A DNA stretch of 59,293 nucleotides, taken from NCBI GenBank assembly GCA_017436865.1, contig JAFSCH010000066.1, positions 1 to 59,293 on the forward strand, written 5' to 3'. A program made the position numbers and the translations under genes. This stretch comes from Lachnospiraceae bacterium (GTDB taxonomy: Bacteria > Bacillota > Clostridia > Lachnospirales > Lachnospiraceae). The notes beneath the pieces were generated by a model, which worked only from the letters and a program-made list of their open reading frames with translations, searched no databases and was not told the origin of the DNA. Below, piece after piece: positions 19,261 to 28,073 of the stretch (positions are counted from its first letter, which is position 1; each line of letters starts with the position of its first letter).

Positions 19261-19316
19261 CAATTGAGGGACAAAAAAAGACAGATAAGGGAAACGAACA
19301 CACAAATATGTTGAAT
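19261..19316 (+). promoter_or_regulatory. LytTR-type direct repeat and promoter, copy 1
   Basis: CAATTGAGG, 12 bases, CAGATAAGG: the 9-12-9 direct repeat layout of AgrA/ComE-like LytTR regulators. A weak -10 (TTGAAT, 19311-19316) follows 20 bases later. About 75 bases here align with the promoter at 25806, including the transcribed ATATCAAGTGC. It drives the two genes at 19427 and 19693. Confidence 0.65.
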
Positions 19317-19426: not shown

Positions 19427-19708
19427 GTGTTTTTTTCATGGACAGAGTTATATAGTGGTATGGATTATAAAGAATATACCCGTATACAGAAGCTAATGGA
19501 TACTAACAATATTCCAATGAAGGCAAAGGTAAACAACTTGCGTGGCAGAATGGCTGATAATGCAAGATTCGGAGGAAATCCTCTAGTGACAAATACGGTA
19601 GGTGTTTGTTCTATGAATGAAGAATATAGAATCAAGGTAAAAAAGAATGATTATGAAAAGGCAAAAGCCATACTAAGAAAGGAGGTTGTTATGTGGAACT
19701 TGGATTAG
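19427..19708 (+). CDS. Small protein resembling DUF2007 signal-transducing proteins
   Basis: The 93-residue product starts at GTG 19427 after AAGGAG. YKEYTRIQKLMDTNNIPMKAK and YRIKVKKNDYEKAKAIL resemble the two halves of the DUF2007 domain, a small fold proposed to have a signalling role; this match is by eye. It overlaps the next gene by 16 bases and lies behind a LytTR-type site, so it probably belongs to the lanthipeptide regulon. Confidence 0.55.
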   Translation: MFFSWTELYSGMDYKEYTRIQKLMDTNNIPMKAKVNNLRGRMADNARFGGNPLVTNTVGVCSMNEEYRIKVKKNDYEKAKAILRKEVVMWNLD

Positions 19709-20442
19709 TTGTAAATAATACTAGATGTTTTGAGAACAATTATTTGATGAGTGATAAATACAGTGGTGCAGAAACATCAGCATTTAAGCATCTGATTTTT
19801 TTCAGTAATGATGATAGACTAGACAAAGATATGAGTAGTTGTTCATCTGGAAGAGAGATGAGCAAACAGGAGTTGTTTGAAAAGCTTAAAGCTTCATCTG
19901 CGGGAGTCCAGAGCCGCATTCAAAAGAAGAGTGCGATTGAAGCTATAGCAATTGAGGAAGAGGTTTCTGATTCTGAATTGAAAAACATAGGACTTACTAG
20001 TTTTGAATTATCCGATACAGCAAGTCAGTTAGTTGTAGCTTCGCTTGTGAAAAATTCTGAGCCTGACAATCCTATTATTCAGGTTTCTTATGGTCGGGGC
20101 GATGCTAGAAAGGTTTATCATGTTCATGTGAATGATATTGATACTACGAATGCATCAGATTTGGAAATGTTTGCGCTGCTTTCGTATGAAGGATATAAAG
20201 GAAGGACTGCACCAGATGCCATTAATAATTATGCGGCATATAAAACAATGAAATTCGGAGCAGGATTAGGAATGTCCTCTAGTAGCGAAAACAGTTTTGT
20301 GAATGAAAAAATAAATATAGATGAGCTATTACAACAAGTGTATGAGTTATTAAAGGATGGAAAATCGGCAGAAGAAAAAAAGAGTGCTGAAAATTGTGAC
20401 TATTTGATTCAATTGCTTAAGAACCATTCCGATCCTGTTTAG
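19693..20442 (+). CDS. Hypothetical protein, 249 aa, in the LytTR regulon
   Basis: Start GTG 19693 with AAAGGAGG 7 bases upstream, inside the end of the previous gene, so the two are coupled. The protein is soluble, Ser-rich and acidic, without signal peptide or membrane helices. The stretch IIQVSYGRGDARKVYHVHVN looks like a small beta domain, and a Gly/Ser/Met-rich turn follows (GAGLGMSSSSENSF). It ends in a charged helix. I do not recognise the family. The shared promoter suggests a role linked to the peptide system, perhaps as a target or response protein. Confidence 0.6.
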   Translation: MELGLVVNNTRCFENNYLMSDKYSGAETSAFKHLIFFSNDDRLDKDMSSCSSGREMSKQELFEKLKASSAGVQSRIQKKSAIEAIAIEEEVSDSELKNIGLTSFELSDTASQLVVASLVKNSEPDNPIIQVSYGRGDARKVYHVHVNDIDTTNASDLEMFALLSYEGYKGRTAPDAINNYAAYKTMKFGAGLGMSSSSENSFVNEKINIDELLQQVYELLKDGKSAEEKKSAENCDYLIQLLKNHSDPV

Positions 20443-20469: not shown

Positions 20470-20507
20470 AAAAGAGCCGGTCTTGATTTATAGACGGGTT
20501 CTTTTTG
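20470..20507 (+). terminator. Terminator after the 19693 gene
   Basis: AAAAGAGCCGGTCT against AGACGGGTTCTTTT with one mismatch and one wobble, followed by T residues. It separates the two regulon units. Confidence 0.7.
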
Positions 20508-20519
20508 TATACAAAATAA

Positions 20520-20576
20520 CAATTTGCGGACAAAAATCGACAATTAAAGGACAAAAGCAACATGATGTGATATATT
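20520..20576 (+). promoter_or_regulatory. LytTR-type direct repeat and promoter, copy 2
   Basis: CAATTTGCG, 12 bases, CAATTAAAG, then TATATT 21 bases after the second half-site. It is upstream of the response regulator gene, so the regulator probably activates its own operon. The spacer shares GACAAAAA..GA with the other two copies. Confidence 0.65.
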
Positions 20577-20608
20577 ATGTTAATATACAAAAAATAAGTG
20601 GGGAATAT

Positions 20609-21325
20609 ATGTATCGGGTTGCGATTGTAGATGATAATGATATGGATAGAAGTCTGATAGAGAGATTATCAGATGAATATTTCAGAAAAAAGGAATACGA
20701 ATATGAGATAAAGACCTTTGAACGAAGTGAGCGTGCAATTATGGAACTTCAGGAGGGCGGCTATTATGATGTCTTTCTGTTGGATATGGATATGCCGGAC
20801 AAGACAGGCTTGCAGGTGGCAAAAGAGATACGCCAATATTACAATGAGCCAATTATTGTCTATGTAACTAACCATGTAGAATATGCCATACAGGCATTTG
20901 AGGTAAATGCATTCCGTTATATACCAAAGGCGTTATTGAGAGAGAAGCTGCCAGAGGCATATGATGTGCTGTTGCCGAAGATAGATGCGTTAGATCAAAG
21001 AGCGTATATCGTAGATTCTATATATGGTCTGGAAAAAATATTATATCGAAATATTTTCTATATCAGTAAGGATGGAAAATATATCACCATTGTACATAGA
21101 AATGGCGAAAGCAGAGTAAGAACATCGTTGCAGAAGATTTATGAGGAGCTTGCTTCGAAAGAATTTATATTTATAGATAAGAGCTATATTGCAAATATTG
21201 AGCATGTGACCTCTTGTCAAAGAGGTGAACTGTTTATGAGAAGTGGTGACGTATTACCGATTAGCAGACCTCGATATCAGGAAGTCAGAAAGGCGATTGC
21301 TGATTATTGGAGGGGGATGAGGTAA
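20609..21325 (+). CDS. LytTR-family response regulator (AgrA/ComE-like)
   Basis: 238 aa. The receiver domain has acidic residues D8/D9, phospho-acceptor D59 (FLLDMDMPDKTG) and the conserved Lys in RYIPKALL. A LytTR DNA-binding domain follows from about residue 145 (FYISKDGKYITIVHRNGES), ending IEHVTSC...LPISRPRYQEV. ATG 20609 is chosen because the receiver fold begins right there; the longer frame would run through the promoter. The stop overlaps the start of the kinase gene (TAATG). Confidence 0.9.
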   Translation: MYRVAIVDDNDMDRSLIERLSDEYFRKKEYEYEIKTFERSERAIMELQEGGYYDVFLLDMDMPDKTGLQVAKEIRQYYNEPIIVYVTNHVEYAIQAFEVNAFRYIPKALLREKLPEAYDVLLPKIDALDQRAYIVDSIYGLEKILYRNIFYISKDGKYITIVHRNGESRVRTSLQKIYEELASKEFIFIDKSYIANIEHVTSCQRGELFMRSGDVLPISRPRYQEVRKAIADYWRGMR

Positions 21326-22623
21326 TGGAGCTATATATATTATCCTTTATAGAGATATTATTTCAAACGCTCTGTGGTCTGGGAATATTTATTGAGGCGT
21401 ATGGAACGGATGTATCCCATAAAAAGTGGACAAAGTGGATATTAGTCTTATTTTTGATACTGGATTTTGATTCTAATGTTAGAAATAATACTCGTTGCTT
21501 AATATCGACAAGTAATTTCCTGATAGAAGTACCTGTTATTTCACTTTGGTTATGGGGTTGGACGCAGACATCATTAAGTAGAGTATCTGCATGGACTGTA
21601 TTTTACTTGGCGACTTGTTTGCTGCTAAAAATGCCGGTATTAATCTTAGGTGGGATTGTATACGGAACCGGATTAGGAGATACGAATTTAAATCCATATC
21701 CATGGGAAATGCTGATTAATATAGGAATTATAATCAGTGTGTATCTGTTGAGTCGAAAATATAGGACACGAATTATTTCTTTTCTACGACAGATGCCGCA
21801 TCAAAGAGCAATTTTAAGTGGGATCGGTGCATTAGAGTTTGCGGTTGTTATATATCTTATGAACCTTGGTGTCGAGCGGTTTTCTGCTTCCATTTTTATT
21901 ATGGCATGTGTGTTTATTATTTGTTTGCTTCTTGCGATGATATTGTCTGTGACTACAATGGAATATCAGTTGATTTGCAAGAATAAGCAGATGATGGAGT
22001 CGAAGGAAAGCTCACTGAGAGAGAACTATACATTGCTAAGTCAGGAAATAGAGCGTAATCGGAAGATAAACCATGACAGAAAACATGATTTTTCTTATCT
22101 GTATGATTGTTTTCTAAGAAATGATTATGCAAGTGGGATTCAATACATAGAAACAAAAAATGCATTCCATGAACAACAGAAGCAAAGAGAAGTCTGGACT
22201 GGGCATGGAGGAATTGATTTCCTGCTTAACAAGGCGAAGCAGAGAGCAGAAGCGTTACAGGCAAATTTTTATCTGGAAATTGATTTACTGGAGCTTCCTA
22301 TGGCGGAATATGATATTTTTTATGCACTGGGAAATTTGCTTGATAATGCCATAGAAGCGATAGAAAAATGTGATGCAGGTAATAGATTTATACATATAAA
22401 AATGATGAACAAAAATAATGTATTTCAGTTATATATAGAGAATAGTTACAAAATTGAACCTCATAAAAAAGGAAAAAGATTCCTTTCAACAAAAGAGAAT
22501 GAAAAAAATGAACATGGTTGGGGAATTGAGAATGTGAAGGAGATTGTAGAGCGATATAAGGGGATGCTGGATATAAGCTATCAAAATCAAAGGTTTCAAG
22601 TAGATTTGGTTTTGATAAAATAG
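21325..22623 (+). CDS. AgrC-like peptide-sensing histidine kinase (HPK10 type)
   Basis: 432 aa. The first roughly 210 residues hold about six hydrophobic segments, the polytopic sensor typical of AgrC/ComD-like kinases. A coiled linker leads to the His region NHDRKHDFSYLYD and the ATP-binding domain with NLLDNAIEAIEKC (N box) and GWGIENVKEIVERY (G box). The usual Asn after the H-D in AgrC kinases is not kept. ATG 21325 overlaps the regulator stop. The signal is probably a peptide, plausibly the lanthipeptide itself. Confidence 0.87.
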   Translation: MELYILSFIEILFQTLCGLGIFIEAYGTDVSHKKWTKWILVLFLILDFDSNVRNNTRCLISTSNFLIEVPVISLWLWGWTQTSLSRVSAWTVFYLATCLLLKMPVLILGGIVYGTGLGDTNLNPYPWEMLINIGIIISVYLLSRKYRTRIISFLRQMPHQRAILSGIGALEFAVVIYLMNLGVERFSASIFIMACVFIICLLLAMILSVTTMEYQLICKNKQMMESKESSLRENYTLLSQEIERNRKINHDRKHDFSYLYDCFLRNDYASGIQYIETKNAFHEQQKQREVWTGHGGIDFLLNKAKQRAEALQANFYLEIDLLELPMAEYDIFYALGNLLDNAIEAIEKCDAGNRFIHIKMMNKNNVFQLYIENSYKIEPHKKGKRFLSTKENEKNEHGWGIENVKEIVERYKGMLDISYQNQRFQVDLVLIK

Positions 22624-22641
22624 ATATAAGGAGAAAGTGGC

Positions 22642-22776
22642 ATGGAAGACTTAATGCTTTATGCAGGAGATACTGTGAAAGAATTACAGGAGGCAGAAAA
22701 GTTATCTGCAAAAACAGAAGAAGTTATTTCGCTTACAGTAGGATGTGGAGGAGGAAAAACCTTACTGTGTTGTTAA
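22642..22776 (+). CDS. Candidate lanthipeptide precursor (LanA), 44 aa
   Basis: Too short for ordinary gene finders, but it has AAGGAG 8 bases before ATG 22642, lies 18 bases after the kinase gene, and is followed by an attenuator and LanM. The acidic leader includes VKELQEAEKLSAKTEEV, and the C-terminal part is ISLTVGCGGGKTLLCC. Ser30, Thr32 and Thr40 could be dehydrated and Cys35, Cys43 and Cys44 could close up to three (methyl)lanthionine rings. The only Gly-Gly lies inside the Cys region (36-38), so the cleavage point is unclear. I do not recognise it as a known lantibiotic. Confidence 0.8.
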   Translation: MEDLMLYAGDTVKELQEAEKLSAKTEEVISLTVGCGGGKTLLCC

Positions 22777-22786
22777 GTAGGAAGAG

Positions 22787-22821
22787 GACTGGAGATATTT
22801 CGATATCGAAAGTCTTTTTTT
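22787..22821 (+). terminator. Attenuator between lanA and lanM
   Basis: GACT...AGTC encloses GATAT-TTCG-ATATC, followed by seven T residues. A partial terminator at this place would make much more precursor than synthetase, a usual arrangement in lantibiotic operons. Confidence 0.7.
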
Positions 22822-22854
22822 CTTGATATAAATGTGATGATATAGGTGATTATA

Positions 22855-25833
22855 ATGATACGAATAAAAGAAATGACAGAAGAACAAAAGGTGTATTGGA
22901 AGAAAATCTTAGGAGAAAAGTTATATGAAAGACTTATGAATAACTATGAGCAAGAGCTTATAGGTATACCGTTTGACGGAGTAGAGGAAACACAACATTT
23001 TTTGAGTTGTTGGTCGGAAACAGATAAGAAAAAAGAAGTAAAAGCATTAAAAGGTTTAAAGGATGAAGTGTTTTCACCATTTTATCGGTTGATGATTCGA
23101 GGATATCTTGATTTTGTACAAGTAAAATGGGAAGAATTTGATAGTATACAGAATGCCAAAAAAGTAATTGTGAAAACATTGTTCGACAGCATTTATCATA
23201 TTCCATTGCGTGTGTGCATCTATGATATGCAGCTTTGTAAGAGAAAGGGAGAGTTAAACGGTGATACCGGTTATCAGGAATATTTGGCATATTGCGAGAA
23301 GCTGACAGATAAGGAATATGTCATAAAGCTATGTCAGGAGTATCCTGAAATGACGAGACTGCTTTATACAAGAATGAAGTATGCATATCATAATCTGCGA
23401 AGCTTTGTGAAAAGATTACAAGAGGATAAAGAACTAATAGAAGAACAGCTATGCTTGGGAAAAAGGTTTAAACGGGTTCAGAGTATACAGCTTGGTGGTT
23501 CTGACAGCCATAAGCAAGGGCAACAGGTTATACAGTGTTTGCTGGATAATGGGTGCAGAATAATTTATAAACCACATAGCATGAATAAAGAGATACAGTA
23601 TCAATATCTATGTAATATGTTCTGTAAGAAAATAGGACTGCCGTCATATTCCTATAGCATAATAAATCAACAAGAATATGGCTGGGAAGCATATTTACAC
23701 AGTAAGGAGTGTGAAAGTGAGGAAGCGGTTAAAAGATATTATAAGAGAATGGGGATTCATTTGTTTCTTTGCTATTTGTTGCGGATTACGGATATGCATC
23801 AGGAGAATATATTGGCTGTTGGAGAGTTCCCGGTTGCAGTTGATGTGGAGACTATGCCGGGAATCGCAATGAGGCAGGAAAAAGAGAATGCAGAAGAATC
23901 GATAAAATGTAAGATCAGTACGACAGTTCTCACATCGGGCATTTTGCCGACACCAGTATGGAGTAATGGACAGGAAGGGGTTATTATCAGTGCCTTGTAC
24001 TGTAATGATGAAGTAAAGGCCACAGTAAAACTGCCAGTTATTCGAAAACCAAAAACTTCAGAAATGTACATAGATTATGAATTTAGAAAAATAAAAAGGA
24101 CAAATAGTATTCCTACATATCGGGGTGAGAAACAGTATGTAGATACTTATTTAGAAGATATTTGTGAAGGTTTTGATGGGGCATATAAACTGTTTCTGAG
24201 AGAAAAAACGAGTCTAAATACAATAATAGAACCAATATGGAAGGAGAAGACAAGATATCTTGTCAGACATACACAGCAATACAGTATGTATTTATCAAGC
24301 TCCTTGCATCCAATATTTTTGAAAAGTTCAGAGTATCGTTTGCTTATGTTGCAGATATTGCAGAAAGAGGATATTGACAGAGACGTGATAAAGCAGGAAA
24401 TATCCGCAATGATAAATTTGGATATTCCTTTATTAGAATGTGATGCGAAAGAGGAGTTATCTGTTTTTAGTCAGTCTGCTCATGTAACATACATGAATAA
24501 GGTTAAAAGCTTAAATGAGAGGGATTTGCAGGAGCAGCTAGAACTAATCAGACTTTCTGTTGAAATGATGGATTTCCAACACATACAAAATGAATATTTC
24601 AAACCGAAAATGAAGCCAATGGAAAGCAATAAAATAGATAAAGCAAAGGTTAAAAAGGCTTTAAATATCATAATAGAACGAATTATTAAAACGAGTGTAA
24701 TAGAGCGAGAGGATATTAGCTGGCAGACTATGAAACTCGAAGGAACCAATCTGTGGAGAATGGAACCTATCACATATGATTTCTATCATGGGATTAGTGG
24801 TTTGACTTTGTTTGTTGCAGTGGCATATCAGGAAGGATATTTTACGGATAGTAGTATTTATAAGCTGTTAATGAAGAGGTTATATAGGTATGTAGATGAT
24901 ATTTGCGATTGTCGAAATGAAGCAGTGTTGAGTGAGCAGAATGGACTAATGTTAGGAAGTAGTTCTGTTTTATATACGTTTTTGTTTCTTTATCAGAGTT
25001 TAGGAGAAGAAGAATTCTTGAGTTATGCAAAGAAGCTGGCATCGCATGTGGTGTCAAGTTATCAACAGGATAAGGAGCATGACTTATTAGCCGGAAACGC
25101 AGGAATAATCTTTGTATTATCCAAACTTTATGAAATTACCAAAGAAAAGGAATATATAGACCTTGCAATAACGATTGGTGACTATCTCATGAAGCGTATG
25201 GAAGAACAGAGTGTAGGCTATGGATTTCGAGGACAAACCTGTAAAGAAGTGCTTTCAGGAATGGCGCATGGAAATAGCGGATTTATCGTGGCTTATGCAG
25301 AACTGCTAAAGCACACAAAAGACAAGAAATATTGCAAAGTAATTGATGAACTATTGGCATACGAAGATTCGCTATACGATGAAGAAGTAGGGAACTGGAG
25401 GGATTTACGCTATGCACAGCAGAATTCCTATGCCAATGCATGGTGTCATGGTGCTGCGGGAATATTGCTTTCCAGATTGCAATTATTACAATTACCGGAA
25501 TATCAGCAGAATATTGTTGTTCAGCGTGATTTGGAAAATGCAGCTAAGGTATTGTTCTCACAGTCTATGCGAAAAGGGTTATGCATCTGTCATGGAATGT
25601 CAGGCAATTACCTGATCATGAGAGAATATCAGAAGTACTATAATCTTACGACAGAACAAAAAGAATATATGGAACAATTAAAAAGGGAGATTGTTCATGC
25701 AGTATGTGCGGATTCTTTACTGCCACAGGATAAATATATGATGGGATTCATGATTGGAATATCAGGAATTGGGTATACATTGCTGCAAATATTGTCGGAT
25801 TATGTCAATTGGGGGACAAAAAAAGACAGATAA
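22855..25833 (+). CDS. lanM: Class II lanthipeptide synthetase LanM
   Basis: 992 aa, full length for LanM. The N-terminal dehydratase (DUF4135) half carries LGGSDSHKQGQQV near 212-224, IYKPHSM and DMHQENILAVGEFPVAVDVE, the expected active-site segments. The C-terminal LanC-like cyclase has GMAHGNSGF (His805), WCHGAAG (Cys864) and CHGMSG (Cys912, His913), so the three zinc ligands are intact. ATG 22855 follows AGGTG; GTG 22846 is the alternative. The last residues NWGTKKDR are encoded by the LytTR-type site of the next promoter, so the C-terminus may have been reshaped by a promoter duplication. Confidence 0.95.
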   Translation: MIRIKEMTEEQKVYWKKILGEKLYERLMNNYEQELIGIPFDGVEETQHFLSCWSETDKKKEVKALKGLKDEVFSPFYRLMIRGYLDFVQVKWEEFDSIQNAKKVIVKTLFDSIYHIPLRVCIYDMQLCKRKGELNGDTGYQEYLAYCEKLTDKEYVIKLCQEYPEMTRLLYTRMKYAYHNLRSFVKRLQEDKELIEEQLCLGKRFKRVQSIQLGGSDSHKQGQQVIQCLLDNGCRIIYKPHSMNKEIQYQYLCNMFCKKIGLPSYSYSIINQQEYGWEAYLHSKECESEEAVKRYYKRMGIHLFLCYLLRITDMHQENILAVGEFPVAVDVETMPGIAMRQEKENAEESIKCKISTTVLTSGILPTPVWSNGQEGVIISALYCNDEVKATVKLPVIRKPKTSEMYIDYEFRKIKRTNSIPTYRGEKQYVDTYLEDICEGFDGAYKLFLREKTSLNTIIEPIWKEKTRYLVRHTQQYSMYLSSSLHPIFLKSSEYRLLMLQILQKEDIDRDVIKQEISAMINLDIPLLECDAKEELSVFSQSAHVTYMNKVKSLNERDLQEQLELIRLSVEMMDFQHIQNEYFKPKMKPMESNKIDKAKVKKALNIIIERIIKTSVIEREDISWQTMKLEGTNLWRMEPITYDFYHGISGLTLFVAVAYQEGYFTDSSIYKLLMKRLYRYVDDICDCRNEAVLSEQNGLMLGSSSVLYTFLFLYQSLGEEEFLSYAKKLASHVVSSYQQDKEHDLLAGNAGIIFVLSKLYEITKEKEYIDLAITIGDYLMKRMEEQSVGYGFRGQTCKEVLSGMAHGNSGFIVAYAELLKHTKDKKYCKVIDELLAYEDSLYDEEVGNWRDLRYAQQNSYANAWCHGAAGILLSRLQLLQLPEYQQNIVVQRDLENAAKVLFSQSMRKGLCICHGMSGNYLIMREYQKYYNLTTEQKEYMEQLKREIVHAVCADSLLPQDKYMMGFMIGISGIGYTLLQILSDYVNWGTKKDR

Positions 25834-25860
25834 AGGAAATAATCACATAAATTATATAAT
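25806..25860 (+). promoter_or_regulatory. LytTR-type direct repeat and promoter, copy 3
   Basis: CAATTGGGG, 12 bases, CAGATAAAG and a perfect TATAAT at 25855-25860, 19 bases after the second half-site. The direct repeat overlaps the last codons and stop of lanM. It drives the secreted protein at 25914. Confidence 0.7.
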
Positions 25861-25913
25861 TTGTGTAAAAATAGGAATATCAAGTGCTTGAATAAGAAAA
25901 GGAGGAAATAGAA

Positions 25914-26417
25914 ATGAAGAAAATGGCAATAGTATTAATGGTGTTTGTAATGAGTATGGGAACTGGTGTGACAACATATGCTTCTGAGGAACAAAAAACA
26001 GTTAATGAAGATGTTGTTATTATTCGAGAAGATGTAGCAAGAGAAGAAGCGATGCAGGATGCTACGTTTAGTGTAGGTAAAGCGAATAAGCTTAAAAAGT
26101 TAGAAAAGGCGCCCAATGATTTTATGAGTATTTTTTCAGCAGATGAGCCAGTATCATGGAAAGTATGGGGAGAAAGAAAATATAAACAAATAGACGGTAA
26201 AGAAGGTTACATTCCATATGGATATTCAGCACATATGAAAGGTGAAACGGTGTTAGACACTTATCATTATACAAGAACGTATTTCGGAGCGATAATGAAA
26301 TATGGAGATTCAGATAGGCGGTGGGGAACGGGAACTGTTTGTGCACCAGGAACTTGGGTTGACAAAGAAACTGCATCAAATAAAACATTATATGTTAAAT
26401 ATGGAACAGAAGATTAA
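25914..26417 (+). CDS. Secreted protein of unknown function in the lanthipeptide island
   Basis: 167 aa with a clear signal peptide (MKKMAIVLMVFVMSMGTG, cleavage near YAS-EE). AAGGAGG lies just upstream. The mature part has an acidic first section, then an aromatic and Gly-rich C-terminal domain (YKQIDGKEGYIPYGYSAHM, YHYTRTYFGAIMKYGDSDRR, WGTGTVCAPGTW) with a single Cys. The Trp/Tyr/Gly-rich pattern after a signal peptide recalls lactococcin 972-type secreted proteins, but I cannot confirm that. It is likely a secreted effector or bacteriocin-like product with the two following genes as partners. Confidence 0.7.
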   Translation: MKKMAIVLMVFVMSMGTGVTTYASEEQKTVNEDVVIIREDVAREEAMQDATFSVGKANKLKKLEKAPNDFMSIFSADEPVSWKVWGERKYKQIDGKEGYIPYGYSAHMKGETVLDTYHYTRTYFGAIMKYGDSDRRWGTGTVCAPGTWVDKETASNKTLYVKYGTED

Positions 26418-27312
26418 TATATCAAAAAAATATATAATAAAAATTGTGATGCTTTTTTTGAATATCATGTGTTTGATAGTAGGGATTTGGGGAATACATG
26501 GACTTTGGATAGATGGAAAAGTAGTAAGGAGAGATGAAGGATTTATTTTCTTCTCATTGCAGCATGAGAGTTCCCCTTTTTCAGTGGATATTCAGAATTT
26601 TAGGCAATTGCAAAAAGAATTGTTGGATACGGAATGGTATGAGTACTATGAAATATATGGACAACCTTTATTCTTAGAGGAAAATATTTTTCAAGATAAG
26701 GAAAATGATTGGAAAACAGATGATGGGAAACATATCATAAATGCAGTACAAATAGGGCAGAATGTATGTGATGATTTTGGCATTGAAATATATAAAGGAA
26801 GAGAATTTATAAAATCGGATTTTTTATATAAATCCAAAGAAAAATTGCCAATCTTAATAGGATATGAATGGGTAAATAAGTTGTCAATTGGAGATATTGT
26901 TTGTGTAGAGTATTTATATGATACCTATGAATGTGTGGTAATTGGTGTTTTGGCTCCTGAATCTATGATATATATGACGAATAAAACATATCTTTTAGAT
27001 AATTGCATTGTTATGCCTAGTTTTGAGGTCTTACAAGGAAGTAATATTACAGATGGATTGAAGATTCACTACGCAAATAAGGTTAGTGGAATAATCAAAG
27101 CTGAAAAAGGGAAAGAGAGACAGGCAATAAAATATTTGAATTCTTGCATTAAGAATACATCTACGGGGGAATATTCATGGTACTCTACTTTGATGGATAT
27201 TAATCTTAGACATACATTTCATGTTGGAATTTACGAAATACTTGTTATGGATATAGTAGTTTGTTTTCTTATGAATGCTTTTATACGAAGAAAGGTTAGA
27301 AGAAATAAATGA
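26401..27312 (+). CDS. Membrane protein with MacB/FtsX-like external domain
   Basis: 303 aa starting at ATG 26401, overlapping the previous gene by 17 bases. One helix lies near residues 11-31 and one near the C-terminus (ILVMDIVVCFLMNAFI), with a large external domain between. IYKGREFIKSDF, LPILIGYEWVNKLSIGDIV and CVVIGVLAPESM follow the pattern of the MacB periplasmic core domain. ABC permeases of this type have three C-terminal helices; only one is left, so this is a truncated permease or a stand-alone relative. No ATPase gene is nearby. Its stop overlaps the start of the next frame (ATGA). Confidence 0.6.
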   Translation: MEQKINISKKYIIKIVMLFLNIMCLIVGIWGIHGLWIDGKVVRRDEGFIFFSLQHESSPFSVDIQNFRQLQKELLDTEWYEYYEIYGQPLFLEENIFQDKENDWKTDDGKHIINAVQIGQNVCDDFGIEIYKGREFIKSDFLYKSKEKLPILIGYEWVNKLSIGDIVCVEYLYDTYECVVIGVLAPESMIYMTNKTYLLDNCIVMPSFEVLQGSNITDGLKIHYANKVSGIIKAEKGKERQAIKYLNSCIKNTSTGEYSWYSTLMDINLRHTFHVGIYEILVMDIVVCFLMNAFIRRKVRRNK

Positions 27313-28073
27313 CGAAGGATACGTATATGAGAAGTAGCATATTGTTAGTAGGAATTATAATTGCTTTATTAGCAGGATGTACACAGGATGTCAAAAGGTG
27401 CAGGGGGATTGTGATATATCGGTAAGTAGTGATGGGAAAAAATATATGGATAAAACCAAAGAAGGAAGAAGATAGTTATCTTTTCTCGTAGGATAAGGAT
27501 TTATTAGTGGAGTCAGAGGGAGAAGAGAAAAATATTTTTTCTGATATAGTGTCCAAATGGGATGTGTTACGGGATGCGTTGGGAAGTAGAATAAGGCTAT
27601 GTAGTGATGATGTAGTGAAATTCACAGATGGAACGTATGGATATCTTTTGATAGAGGATGCTAGAATAACAACACTAACTTATCAGAGTGGAGATCATGT
27701 GTGGAGAATATTTACCGAAGAAGCTTGCAGTGAGCCGATGTTATTAAAGCAGGATGATAGTTATTATGAAGCGTATCGAATCTGTGCTCAGGAATCTTTA
27801 GATGATTTTTTGTATACATATGGTATGTTTTATGGTGTAGGTGATTATGCTGGAATTTGCGTATTATCAAAAGGAATTGAATATTCAGATGAGCAACAGA
27901 TAGAGTGGGAAAAACAGAATATTCGCATAACGCAAATGGAAGTAGAAGAAGGAAAAAGTGAAGATGAAAAGAAAGTAAAGTGTGTATTTCGATTTGCAGA
28001 CGGCGAGAAAGTGTTATATTTACACTTGGTAAGAGAAAATAATAATTGGTATGTAAATGGATTGCCACAGTAA
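27309..28073 (+). pseudogene. Frameshifted lipoprotein gene
   Basis: ATG 27309 overlaps the preceding stop. The first frame gives a lipoprotein signal ending LLAGC, then fails after TQDVKR. The sequence continues in a second frame (VQGDCDISVSSDGKKYMDKT) and then a third frame (EDSYLFS, a TAG at 27489, DKDLLVESEGEEKNIFSDI), which runs open to 28073. Restoring two frameshifts and one stop gives a single lipoprotein of about 250 residues. The 188-residue frame from 27507 lacks a signal peptide and is only the 3' part. It probably worked with the FtsX-like neighbour, for example as an immunity protein; that is inference. Confidence 0.75.

What the first reader, a model, noticed from the sequence alone, without database searches (positions are those of the whole stretch)
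20520..28073. Compact AgrAC-type lanthipeptide locus with an undescribed-looking precursor
A LytTR response regulator, an AgrC-like kinase, a 44-residue peptide gene and a complete LanM lie in one operon. The peptide's C-terminal ISLTVGCGGGKTLLCC has three Ser/Thr and three Cys, enough for three rings in about 16 residues. It does not resemble mersacidin, nukacin or ruminococcin A cores that I recall. The Gly-rich hinge between the first Cys and the C-terminal T-L-L-C-C is distinctive. Seen in sequence: genes, spacing, motifs. Inference: the product is modified and sensed by its own kinase.
Basis: partly seen in the sequence, partly recalled or inferred. Interest (0 to 1): 0.85.

Follow-up and report, generated by a model that had tools for sequence, protein, structure and literature searches.

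The report
Lanthipeptide signal in place of agr
Gut-type bacteria carry a small quorum-sensing-like cassette in which a lanthipeptide and its ring-forming enzyme sit where the usual cyclic signal peptide and its processing enzyme would be, which points to a new chemical kind of bacterial signal that experiments still have to show.

Summary
Confirmed: LytTR regulator, AgrC-type kinase, 44-residue precursor, full-length LanM. The locus is one of a family: the window's LanM clade covers 51 loci, with a related precursor at 49. The precursors share a leader and a [ST]x[ST]xxC...[ST]xxCC-like core; no clade row is LanT-linked. The sister clade is LanT-linked with CTxTxEC cores (7 of 7 read); TxTxEC is kept in 2 of 48 here. 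A GGACA direct repeat of 21-bp period precedes the operon in 24 of 37 loci. In this 4.2-Mb genome the longer motif occurs exactly three times, all in the window. In a relative, both output proteins of the window lie behind RR-HK-AgrD-AgrB. Best reading: agr-like quorum sensing whose signal is a LanM-made thioether peptide. Rings, cleavage, export and sensing are inferred. Export is unexplained: of 16 other genomes with such a LanM, 12 have neither a strong C39 match nor AgrB over cut-off, 7 have neither by curated cut-offs. The window genome has both in trans.

The parts
19269..19294 (+). LytTR-type operator 1, GGACAAAAAAAGACAGATAAGGGAAA, before the 19427-20442 unit
   Evidence: one mismatch in the second GGACA
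19427..19708 (+). 93-aa ORF in the putative regulon (DUF2007 only at E 0.02, below cut-off)
   Evidence: regulation inferred
19747..20442 (+). ORF of about 231-249 aa (start uncertain), no Pfam match
   Evidence: regulation inferred
20528..20553 (+). LytTR-type operator 2, exact GGACA-N16-GGACA, 55 bp before the RR start
20571..20576 (+). probable -10 (TATATT), 17 bp after operator 2
   Evidence: read from the sequence; inference
20609..21325 (+). AgrA-type response regulator (receiver + LytTR)
21325..22623 (+). AgrC-type histidine kinase: multi-helix membrane part, long DHp helix, GHKL ATPase
   Evidence: AF2 model pLDDT 87.9; best PDB matches S. aureus AgrC
22642..22776 (+). predicted lanthipeptide precursor (44 aa), no double-glycine site before the core
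22855..25833 (+). LanM class II lanthipeptide synthetase (992 aa)
25814..25839 (+). LytTR-type operator 3, about 75 bp before the output gene start
   Evidence: one mismatch in the second GGACA
25855..25860 (+). probable -10 (TATAAT), about 16 bp after operator 3
   Evidence: read from the sequence; inference
25914..26417 (+). small secreted protein (167 aa, signal peptide judged by eye), probable output
   Evidence: relatives behind LanM in G040 and behind AgrB in G259
26401..27312 (+). membrane protein, related to a MacB_PCD protein in G040 and to a 367-aa protein in G259 (the window copy itself has no Pfam hit; start uncertain)

Best explanation
The locus is an agr-like quorum-sensing cassette whose signal is a lanthipeptide. 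LanM dehydrates S30, T32 and T40 of the precursor and closes thioether rings with C35, C43 and C44 (probably 30-35, 32-43, 40-44, by recalled analogy). An unlinked protease and exporter remove the leader and release the peptide. The AgrC-type kinase senses it and phosphorylates the LytTR regulator, which binds GGACA-repeat operators at 19269, 20528 and 25814, raises its own operon and switches on a secreted protein with a membrane partner and the two ORFs at 19427-20442. Shown here: gene order, family, LanM residue conservation, operator statistics, clade structure, the absence of linked LanT, of the double-glycine site and of CTxTxEC, and the AgrD-AgrB parallel. Inferred: ring pattern, export, cleavage, regulator binding, ligand-kinase pairing, function of the output genes.
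For: Order RR-HK-precursor-LanM recurs across the clade. Of the 52 rows of the LanM clade 46 are HK-linked, 6 unlabelled, none LanT-linked. Kinases beside LanM: 44 of 44 in one clade, SH-aLRT 99, apart from 10 AgrB-linked and 2 C39-linked ones; distances track LanM, r 0.93. The best fold matches of the kinase are S. aureus AgrC. Operator with 21-bp period: 33 sense hits in 37 loci (483 kb) against 0-5 at each other period from 12 to 39, and 0 in 38 other LanM loci (494 kb), where period 18 had 9 and 24 had 4. Three motif copies in 4.2 Mb, all here, 0 for the reversed control. Both output proteins are homologous to those behind LanM in G040 and behind RR-HK-AgrD-AgrB in G259. Several ordinary agr loci of the window genome and of G381 have the order RR-HK-AgrD-AgrB (L175, L178, L179, L185). 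LanM positions for dehydration and zinc are invariant in 17 of 17 rows, window included. TxTxEC in 2 of 48 against 7 of 7 sisters.
Against: No exporter or leader protease is identified, and no chemistry or sensing is shown. The window genome itself has 3 strong C39 matches and 8 AgrB matches, so export in trans is open there. By the curated cut-off 9 of 16 other genomes have some C39 match, 7 of them weak (21-28 bits). G259's LanM of this clade has no RR-HK beside it, only a 24-aa ORF with a similar core; for L023, on a contig that begins 1.2 kb upstream, no precursor or kinase was found. 13 of 37 loci lack the exact upstream operator, and G259's agr locus has no such repeat. 7 of 49 loci have an ABC ATPase family (6 of its 7 loci downstream, far from LanM), which could be immunity or export. 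Some cores have two Cys only (L069, L073). The AgrB-linked kinases come from three genomes, and the kinase model was seeded with the window's.
Confidence: 0.66

Rival explanations
1. An ordinary autoinduced class II lantibiotic: LanM makes an antimicrobial peptide that also induces its own kinase, as nisin does, exported by a transporter encoded elsewhere.
For: LanM is full length with conserved residues; LanT-linked sisters have mersacidin-like cores; G033 keeps TLTVEC; three C39 transporters are encoded elsewhere in the window's genome; 7 of 49 loci have an ABC ATPase family in the neighbourhood.
Against: No double-glycine site in the window precursor and no LanT-linked row in the clade; 14 of 16 other genomes lack a strong C39 match; the Glu of the motif is mostly lost; a separate output unit has its own operator. 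No dedicated search for LanFEG was made.
Confidence: 0.2
2. The lanthipeptide is one output of the two-component system, whose real ligand is another cue.
For: LanA-LanM is in the regulated operon; CA_C0082 shows that a LanM-like protein can be an effector of agr (PMC10301443: abstract, passages, section 3.1).
Against: LanA-LanM stands in the AgrD-AgrB slot; kinase and LanM are co-inherited, though co-inheritance alone does not prove ligand recognition.
Confidence: 0.12
3. LanM has become a regulatory protein without synthetase activity, as proposed for CA_C0082-type proteins.
For: Linkage with agr-type regulation.
Against: Catalytic and zinc positions invariant in 17 of 17 rows, full length, and a Ser/Thr/Cys precursor beside it at 49 of 51 loci; CA_C0082 homologues lack these residues and have 670-728 aa (PMC10301443, section 3.1).
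Confidence: 0.02

Closest known systems
agr quorum sensing (AgrBDCA)
   Same: AgrC-type kinase, LytTR regulator, small peptide gene in the same operon, direct-repeat operator; the same two output proteins behind RR-HK-AgrD-AgrB in G259
   Different: AgrD and AgrB replaced by a lanthipeptide precursor and LanM; predicted thioether rings instead of a thiolactone
LanT-linked class II loci of the sister clade with CTxTxEC cores (e.g. L024, L026, L088; mersacidin type)
   Same: homologous LanM; leader stretch like AGNxxxExxEA; similar Ser/Thr-Cys spacing, closest in L088 (CTFTVECDQFFTLICC)
   Different: here no Cys before the motif, mostly no Glu, no GG/GA site, no linked LanT; RR-HK upstream instead
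Lacticin 481 / salivaricin A group (recalled, not compared by a tool)
   Same: TxSxEC...CC or TxTxxC...CC core layout; autoinduction by a two-component system in some
   Different: they have double-glycine leaders, LanT and LanFEG (recalled)
CA_C0082 LanM-like effector of C. acetobutylicum agr (PMC10301443)
   Same: LanM-like gene beside agr genes; the paper notes that in C. hungatei such genes and agr lie within lanthipeptide clusters
   Different: there agrBD is kept, the LanM-like protein lacks catalytic and zinc residues, and C. acetobutylicum has no other lanthipeptide genes

Membership tests
Class II lanthipeptide system | LanM with dehydratase (DUF4135) and LanC-like cyclase domains | tested here: met
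Class II lanthipeptide system | conserved dehydratase and zinc-binding positions (roles assigned from recall) | tested here: met
   K239, D313, H315, N318, D330, E332, R467, T473, C864, C912, H913 invariant in 17 of 17 rows, window included
Class II lanthipeptide system | precursor with leader and Ser/Thr/Cys core next to LanM | tested here: met
   49 of 51 loci of the clade
Class II lanthipeptide system | double-glycine leader site and linked C39 LanT (usual, not class-defining) | tested here: not met
   no GG/GA site before the window core; no LanT-linked row among 52; a loose pattern flagged 4 of 48 precursors as possible, not the window's
Class II lanthipeptide system | thioether rings in the product | not testable with these tools
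   needs mass spectrometry
agr quorum sensing | AgrC-type kinase | tested here: met
agr quorum sensing | AgrA-type LytTR regulator with direct-repeat operator | tested here: met
   binding itself not tested
agr quorum sensing | AgrB and AgrD in the locus | tested here: not met
   none among the ORFs of the locus; AgrB over cut-off in 3 of 17 genomes with a clade LanM
Lipid-II-type lantibiotic (mersacidin/lacticin 481 kind) | TxTxEC motif with Glu (role of Glu recalled) | tested here: not met
   window has SLTVGC; TxTxEC 2 of 48, TxTxDC 2 of 48, preceded by Cys 0 of 48

The most novel reading that the evidence does not exclude
A separate kind of quorum sensing: a lantibiotic pathway of Lachnospiraceae and related Clostridia lost its LanT, its double-glycine site and its lipid-II motif once, coupled to an AgrC-AgrA pair, and became a family of thioether-ring pheromones that stand in for AgrD-AgrB and leave the cell by a non-LanT route.
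Probability: 0.48. Interest if true: 0.9.

Novelty: new variant of a known kind. Interest (0 to 1): 0.8.

Why it matters
It would extend cyclic autoinducers from thiolactones and lactones to stable thioether rings, show an antibiotic pathway turned into a signalling pathway, and give a signal class for cultured gut commensals (named records with the cassette include Blautia wexlerae, Blautia caecimuris, Faecalicatena orotica and contorta, Schaedlerella arabinosiphila, Sellimonas caecigallum, Frisingicoccus caecimuris). It also poses a clear open problem: how a leader-bearing lanthipeptide leaves the cell without a linked LanT.

Tried and rejected
Structure of the secreted output protein: AF2 with two rows gave pLDDT 33.5, uninformative. 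A lactococcin-972-like nature of that protein was considered from memory; Pfam and NCBIfam gave no significant match, so it is dropped. In other loci the small secreted protein matched DUF2712 (L085, 121 bits; L104 only E 0.15), and one paper search for DUF2712 found none. A first operator pattern (ACAnTT repeats) was too loose; the GGACA period emerged. The first control for the operator wrongly contained clade loci (L084, L099) and had one hit; redone without them (0 hits). In one search three of the nine sites after LanM are in L076, two of them a palindromic pair, and may be unrelated. The genome-contig scan with the single LanM found nothing; with the alignment it kept the best 80 of 511. 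LanM relatives in a class-wide sample: 8 of 391 genomes besides the window at E 1e-100; I read the flanks of 7 (6 outside the family, G190 inside; not G629) and none had an RR-HK cassette. The LanM tree is FastTree with SH-like support, midpoint root and long branches flagged by the tool; 'sister' depends on that root. PDB sequence search with the kinase gave nothing at E 0.01. No tRNA in the window. Prior-art searches in the held open library; no listed paper was seen to describe this cassette. Most were read as listings only; subscription papers are missing. Walker 2020 (PMC7268733), passages only: the terms LytTR, quorum, histidine kinase, Lachnospir and Blautia do not occur in its main text; its supplements were not seen, so these precursors may be listed there. 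PMC13289728, PMC12715929, PMC10885120: passages only. PMC10301443: abstract, passages, section 3.1.

Full report

2. A family, not a singleton. LanM matches occur in 11 of 38 genomes of the genus and in 25 of 397 sampled genomes of the family at E 1e-50, the window included in both. A scan of named genomes kept the best 80 of 511 loci. Record titles of the clade name mostly Lachnospiraceae, but also plain Clostridia or Eubacteriales, a Ruminococcus and Candidatus Onthocola. The LanM clade of the window holds 52 rows, which are 51 loci (two rows are one G381 gene). A precursor was found at 48 by script (whose end pattern was set with the peptides in view, including two exceptions, L020 and L091) and at L075 by a closer look. 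The two left are L023 (contig begins 1.2 kb upstream) and G259's LanM, beside which only a 24-aa ORF ends in a similar core (described, not altered). Of the 48, 45 end in [ST]xxCC plus at most three residues and 31 fit [ST]x[ST]xxC-x4-5-[ST]xxC(C). Some lack the first Cys (e.g. L065, L066, L069, L073), so two rings may be the minimum.

3. LanT and the double-glycine site are gone. In a FastTree of 106 LanMs, all 46 rows with a kinase just upstream and no LanT lie in the clade of 52 (support 99). The other six are L023, L036, L054, L064 and L082, limited by contig ends or fetched flanks, and G259's LanM, a true exception. No row of the clade is LanT-linked; for loci fetched with 1.5-kb flanks this covers the near neighbourhood only. 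The neighbouring group of 9 has 7 LanT-linked rows; one row elsewhere (L047) has both. From the 9 neighbouring loci I read 7 precursors (none at L025 and L027); all are CTxTxEC with a GG/GA-type leader end, and most share an AG-N-V-(M) ... E-(A/I)-(D/E)-L leader stretch with the window's family. They were filtered for TxTxxC and G[GA], so only the Glu and the preceding Cys are unselected; L013 and L026 are close relatives. Glu is kept in 2 of 48 of the new family (Asp in 2 more, preceding Cys in 0); L020 has a Glu but not the second Ser/Thr. Fisher 1.8e-7, not corrected for kinship. By recalled knowledge this Glu matters for lipid II binding, so that antibiotic action is probably not what selection keeps.

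4. No obvious exporter. In 16 other genomes with a LanM of the clade, C39 matches above 100 bits occur in 2 (G376, G052). Seven more have a weak match over the curated cut-off (21-28 bits); 7 have none over it. AgrB over cut-off occurs in 3 of 17 (G000, G381, G069). So 12 of 16 have neither a strong C39 nor AgrB, and 7 of 16 have neither by curated cut-offs. G122 is a single contig (95% complete), the others mostly drafts. General ABC exporters occur in 10 of 10 genomes tested, so a housekeeping route is possible. The window genome has 3 strong C39 and 8 AgrB matches.

5. A dedicated operator. GG[AT]CA-N16-GG[AT]CA (21-bp period) occurs 33 times on the sense strand of 37 cassette loci (483 kb), 0-5 times at every other period from 12 to 39, and 6 times antisense. 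38 other LanM loci (494 kb) have 0, though 9 at period 18 and 4 at period 24. 24 of 37 loci have one upstream of the operon, 13 do not. Nine sense sites lie after LanM, among them before the secreted-protein genes of L101 and L104. In 5 loci the upstream site lies beyond an antisense XRE-like gene, about 470-600 bp from the operon. In the window a longer motif fits 19269, 20528 and 25814 with 0 expected and has no other site at zero or one mismatch in the genome (one further site with two mismatches; reversed control 0). The motif was written from these three sites, so the in-window figure is partly circular; the genome-wide count and the other loci are not. A -10-like box follows about 16-17 bp after operators 2 and 3.

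6. The agr parallel. The secreted protein at 25914 has relatives in 2 of 396 other sampled family genomes: in G040 behind LanM, and in G259 behind RR, HK, a 50-aa AgrD-like ORF (read by eye) and AgrB (129 bits). The second output protein is also conserved: 36% over 259 columns to G040, 34% over 218 columns to G259; the first is 43% and 42%. MacB_PCD is over cut-off only in G040. G259's agr region has no GGACA repeat. Among 12 other AgrB loci fetched, L175, L178, L179 and L185 clearly show RR-HK-AgrD-AgrB; L181, L182 and L183 differ. Thus LanA-LanM occupies the AgrD-AgrB slot of a cassette with the same output. The kinases beside LanM (300 aa or longer) form one clade, 44 of 44, apart from 10 AgrB-linked ones from three genomes and 2 C39-linked ones. 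Their distances track LanM (r 0.93, 39 loci, p 0.0005), as expected of a co-inherited unit; that does not prove ligand recognition.

7. Literature. The nearest case seen is CA_C0082 of C. acetobutylicum, a LanM-like effector beside complete agr that lacks catalytic residues (PMC10301443). No paper listed was seen to describe the cassette. That is one open library, mostly read as listings.

8. Verdict. A new variant: agr-like signalling with a predicted lanthipeptide pheromone. Signal function is likely but inferred; chemistry, export and sensing are untested.

Noticed in passing
L062, L068, L070, L073, L075: about -3700 to -3350 relative to LanM: The operator lies beyond an antisense XRE-like gene, so the operon promoter may read across it; possible antisense control.
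   Followed up: no
upstream of RR in 18 of the 19 loci that hold it (e.g. L068 -2923, L096 -3098): A conserved protein of about 190 aa (no significant Pfam match for the L096 copy) heads many of these operons; not seen in the window.
   Followed up: partly
window 27312-28073: A short lipoprotein-like start near 27328 ends early and a 188-aa frame follows at 27507; possibly a decayed gene. Described only.
   Followed up: no
L085 8828-9313; similar downstream genes in L090, L101, L104: Small secreted proteins with a C-terminal WSPDS[IV] motif, one matching DUF2712, with membrane proteins and in some loci an ABC ATPase after them.
   Followed up: partly
L059 (G259:C26): A LanM of the clade without kinase and regulator, beside a 24-aa ORF with a similar core, while that genome's output genes stand behind AgrD-AgrB on another contig.
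   Followed up: partly
window 19331 and 25876: The 12-mer AATATCAAGTGC follows both operator 1 and operator 3, suggesting duplicated promoter regions.
   Followed up: no
window 20501-26000: GC 35.5% against 38.6-39.0% in two flanking stretches, perhaps a horizontally gained cassette.
   Followed up: no
L028 (G000:C108): A second LanM (888 aa) with its own C39 transporter in the window's genome.
   Followed up: no
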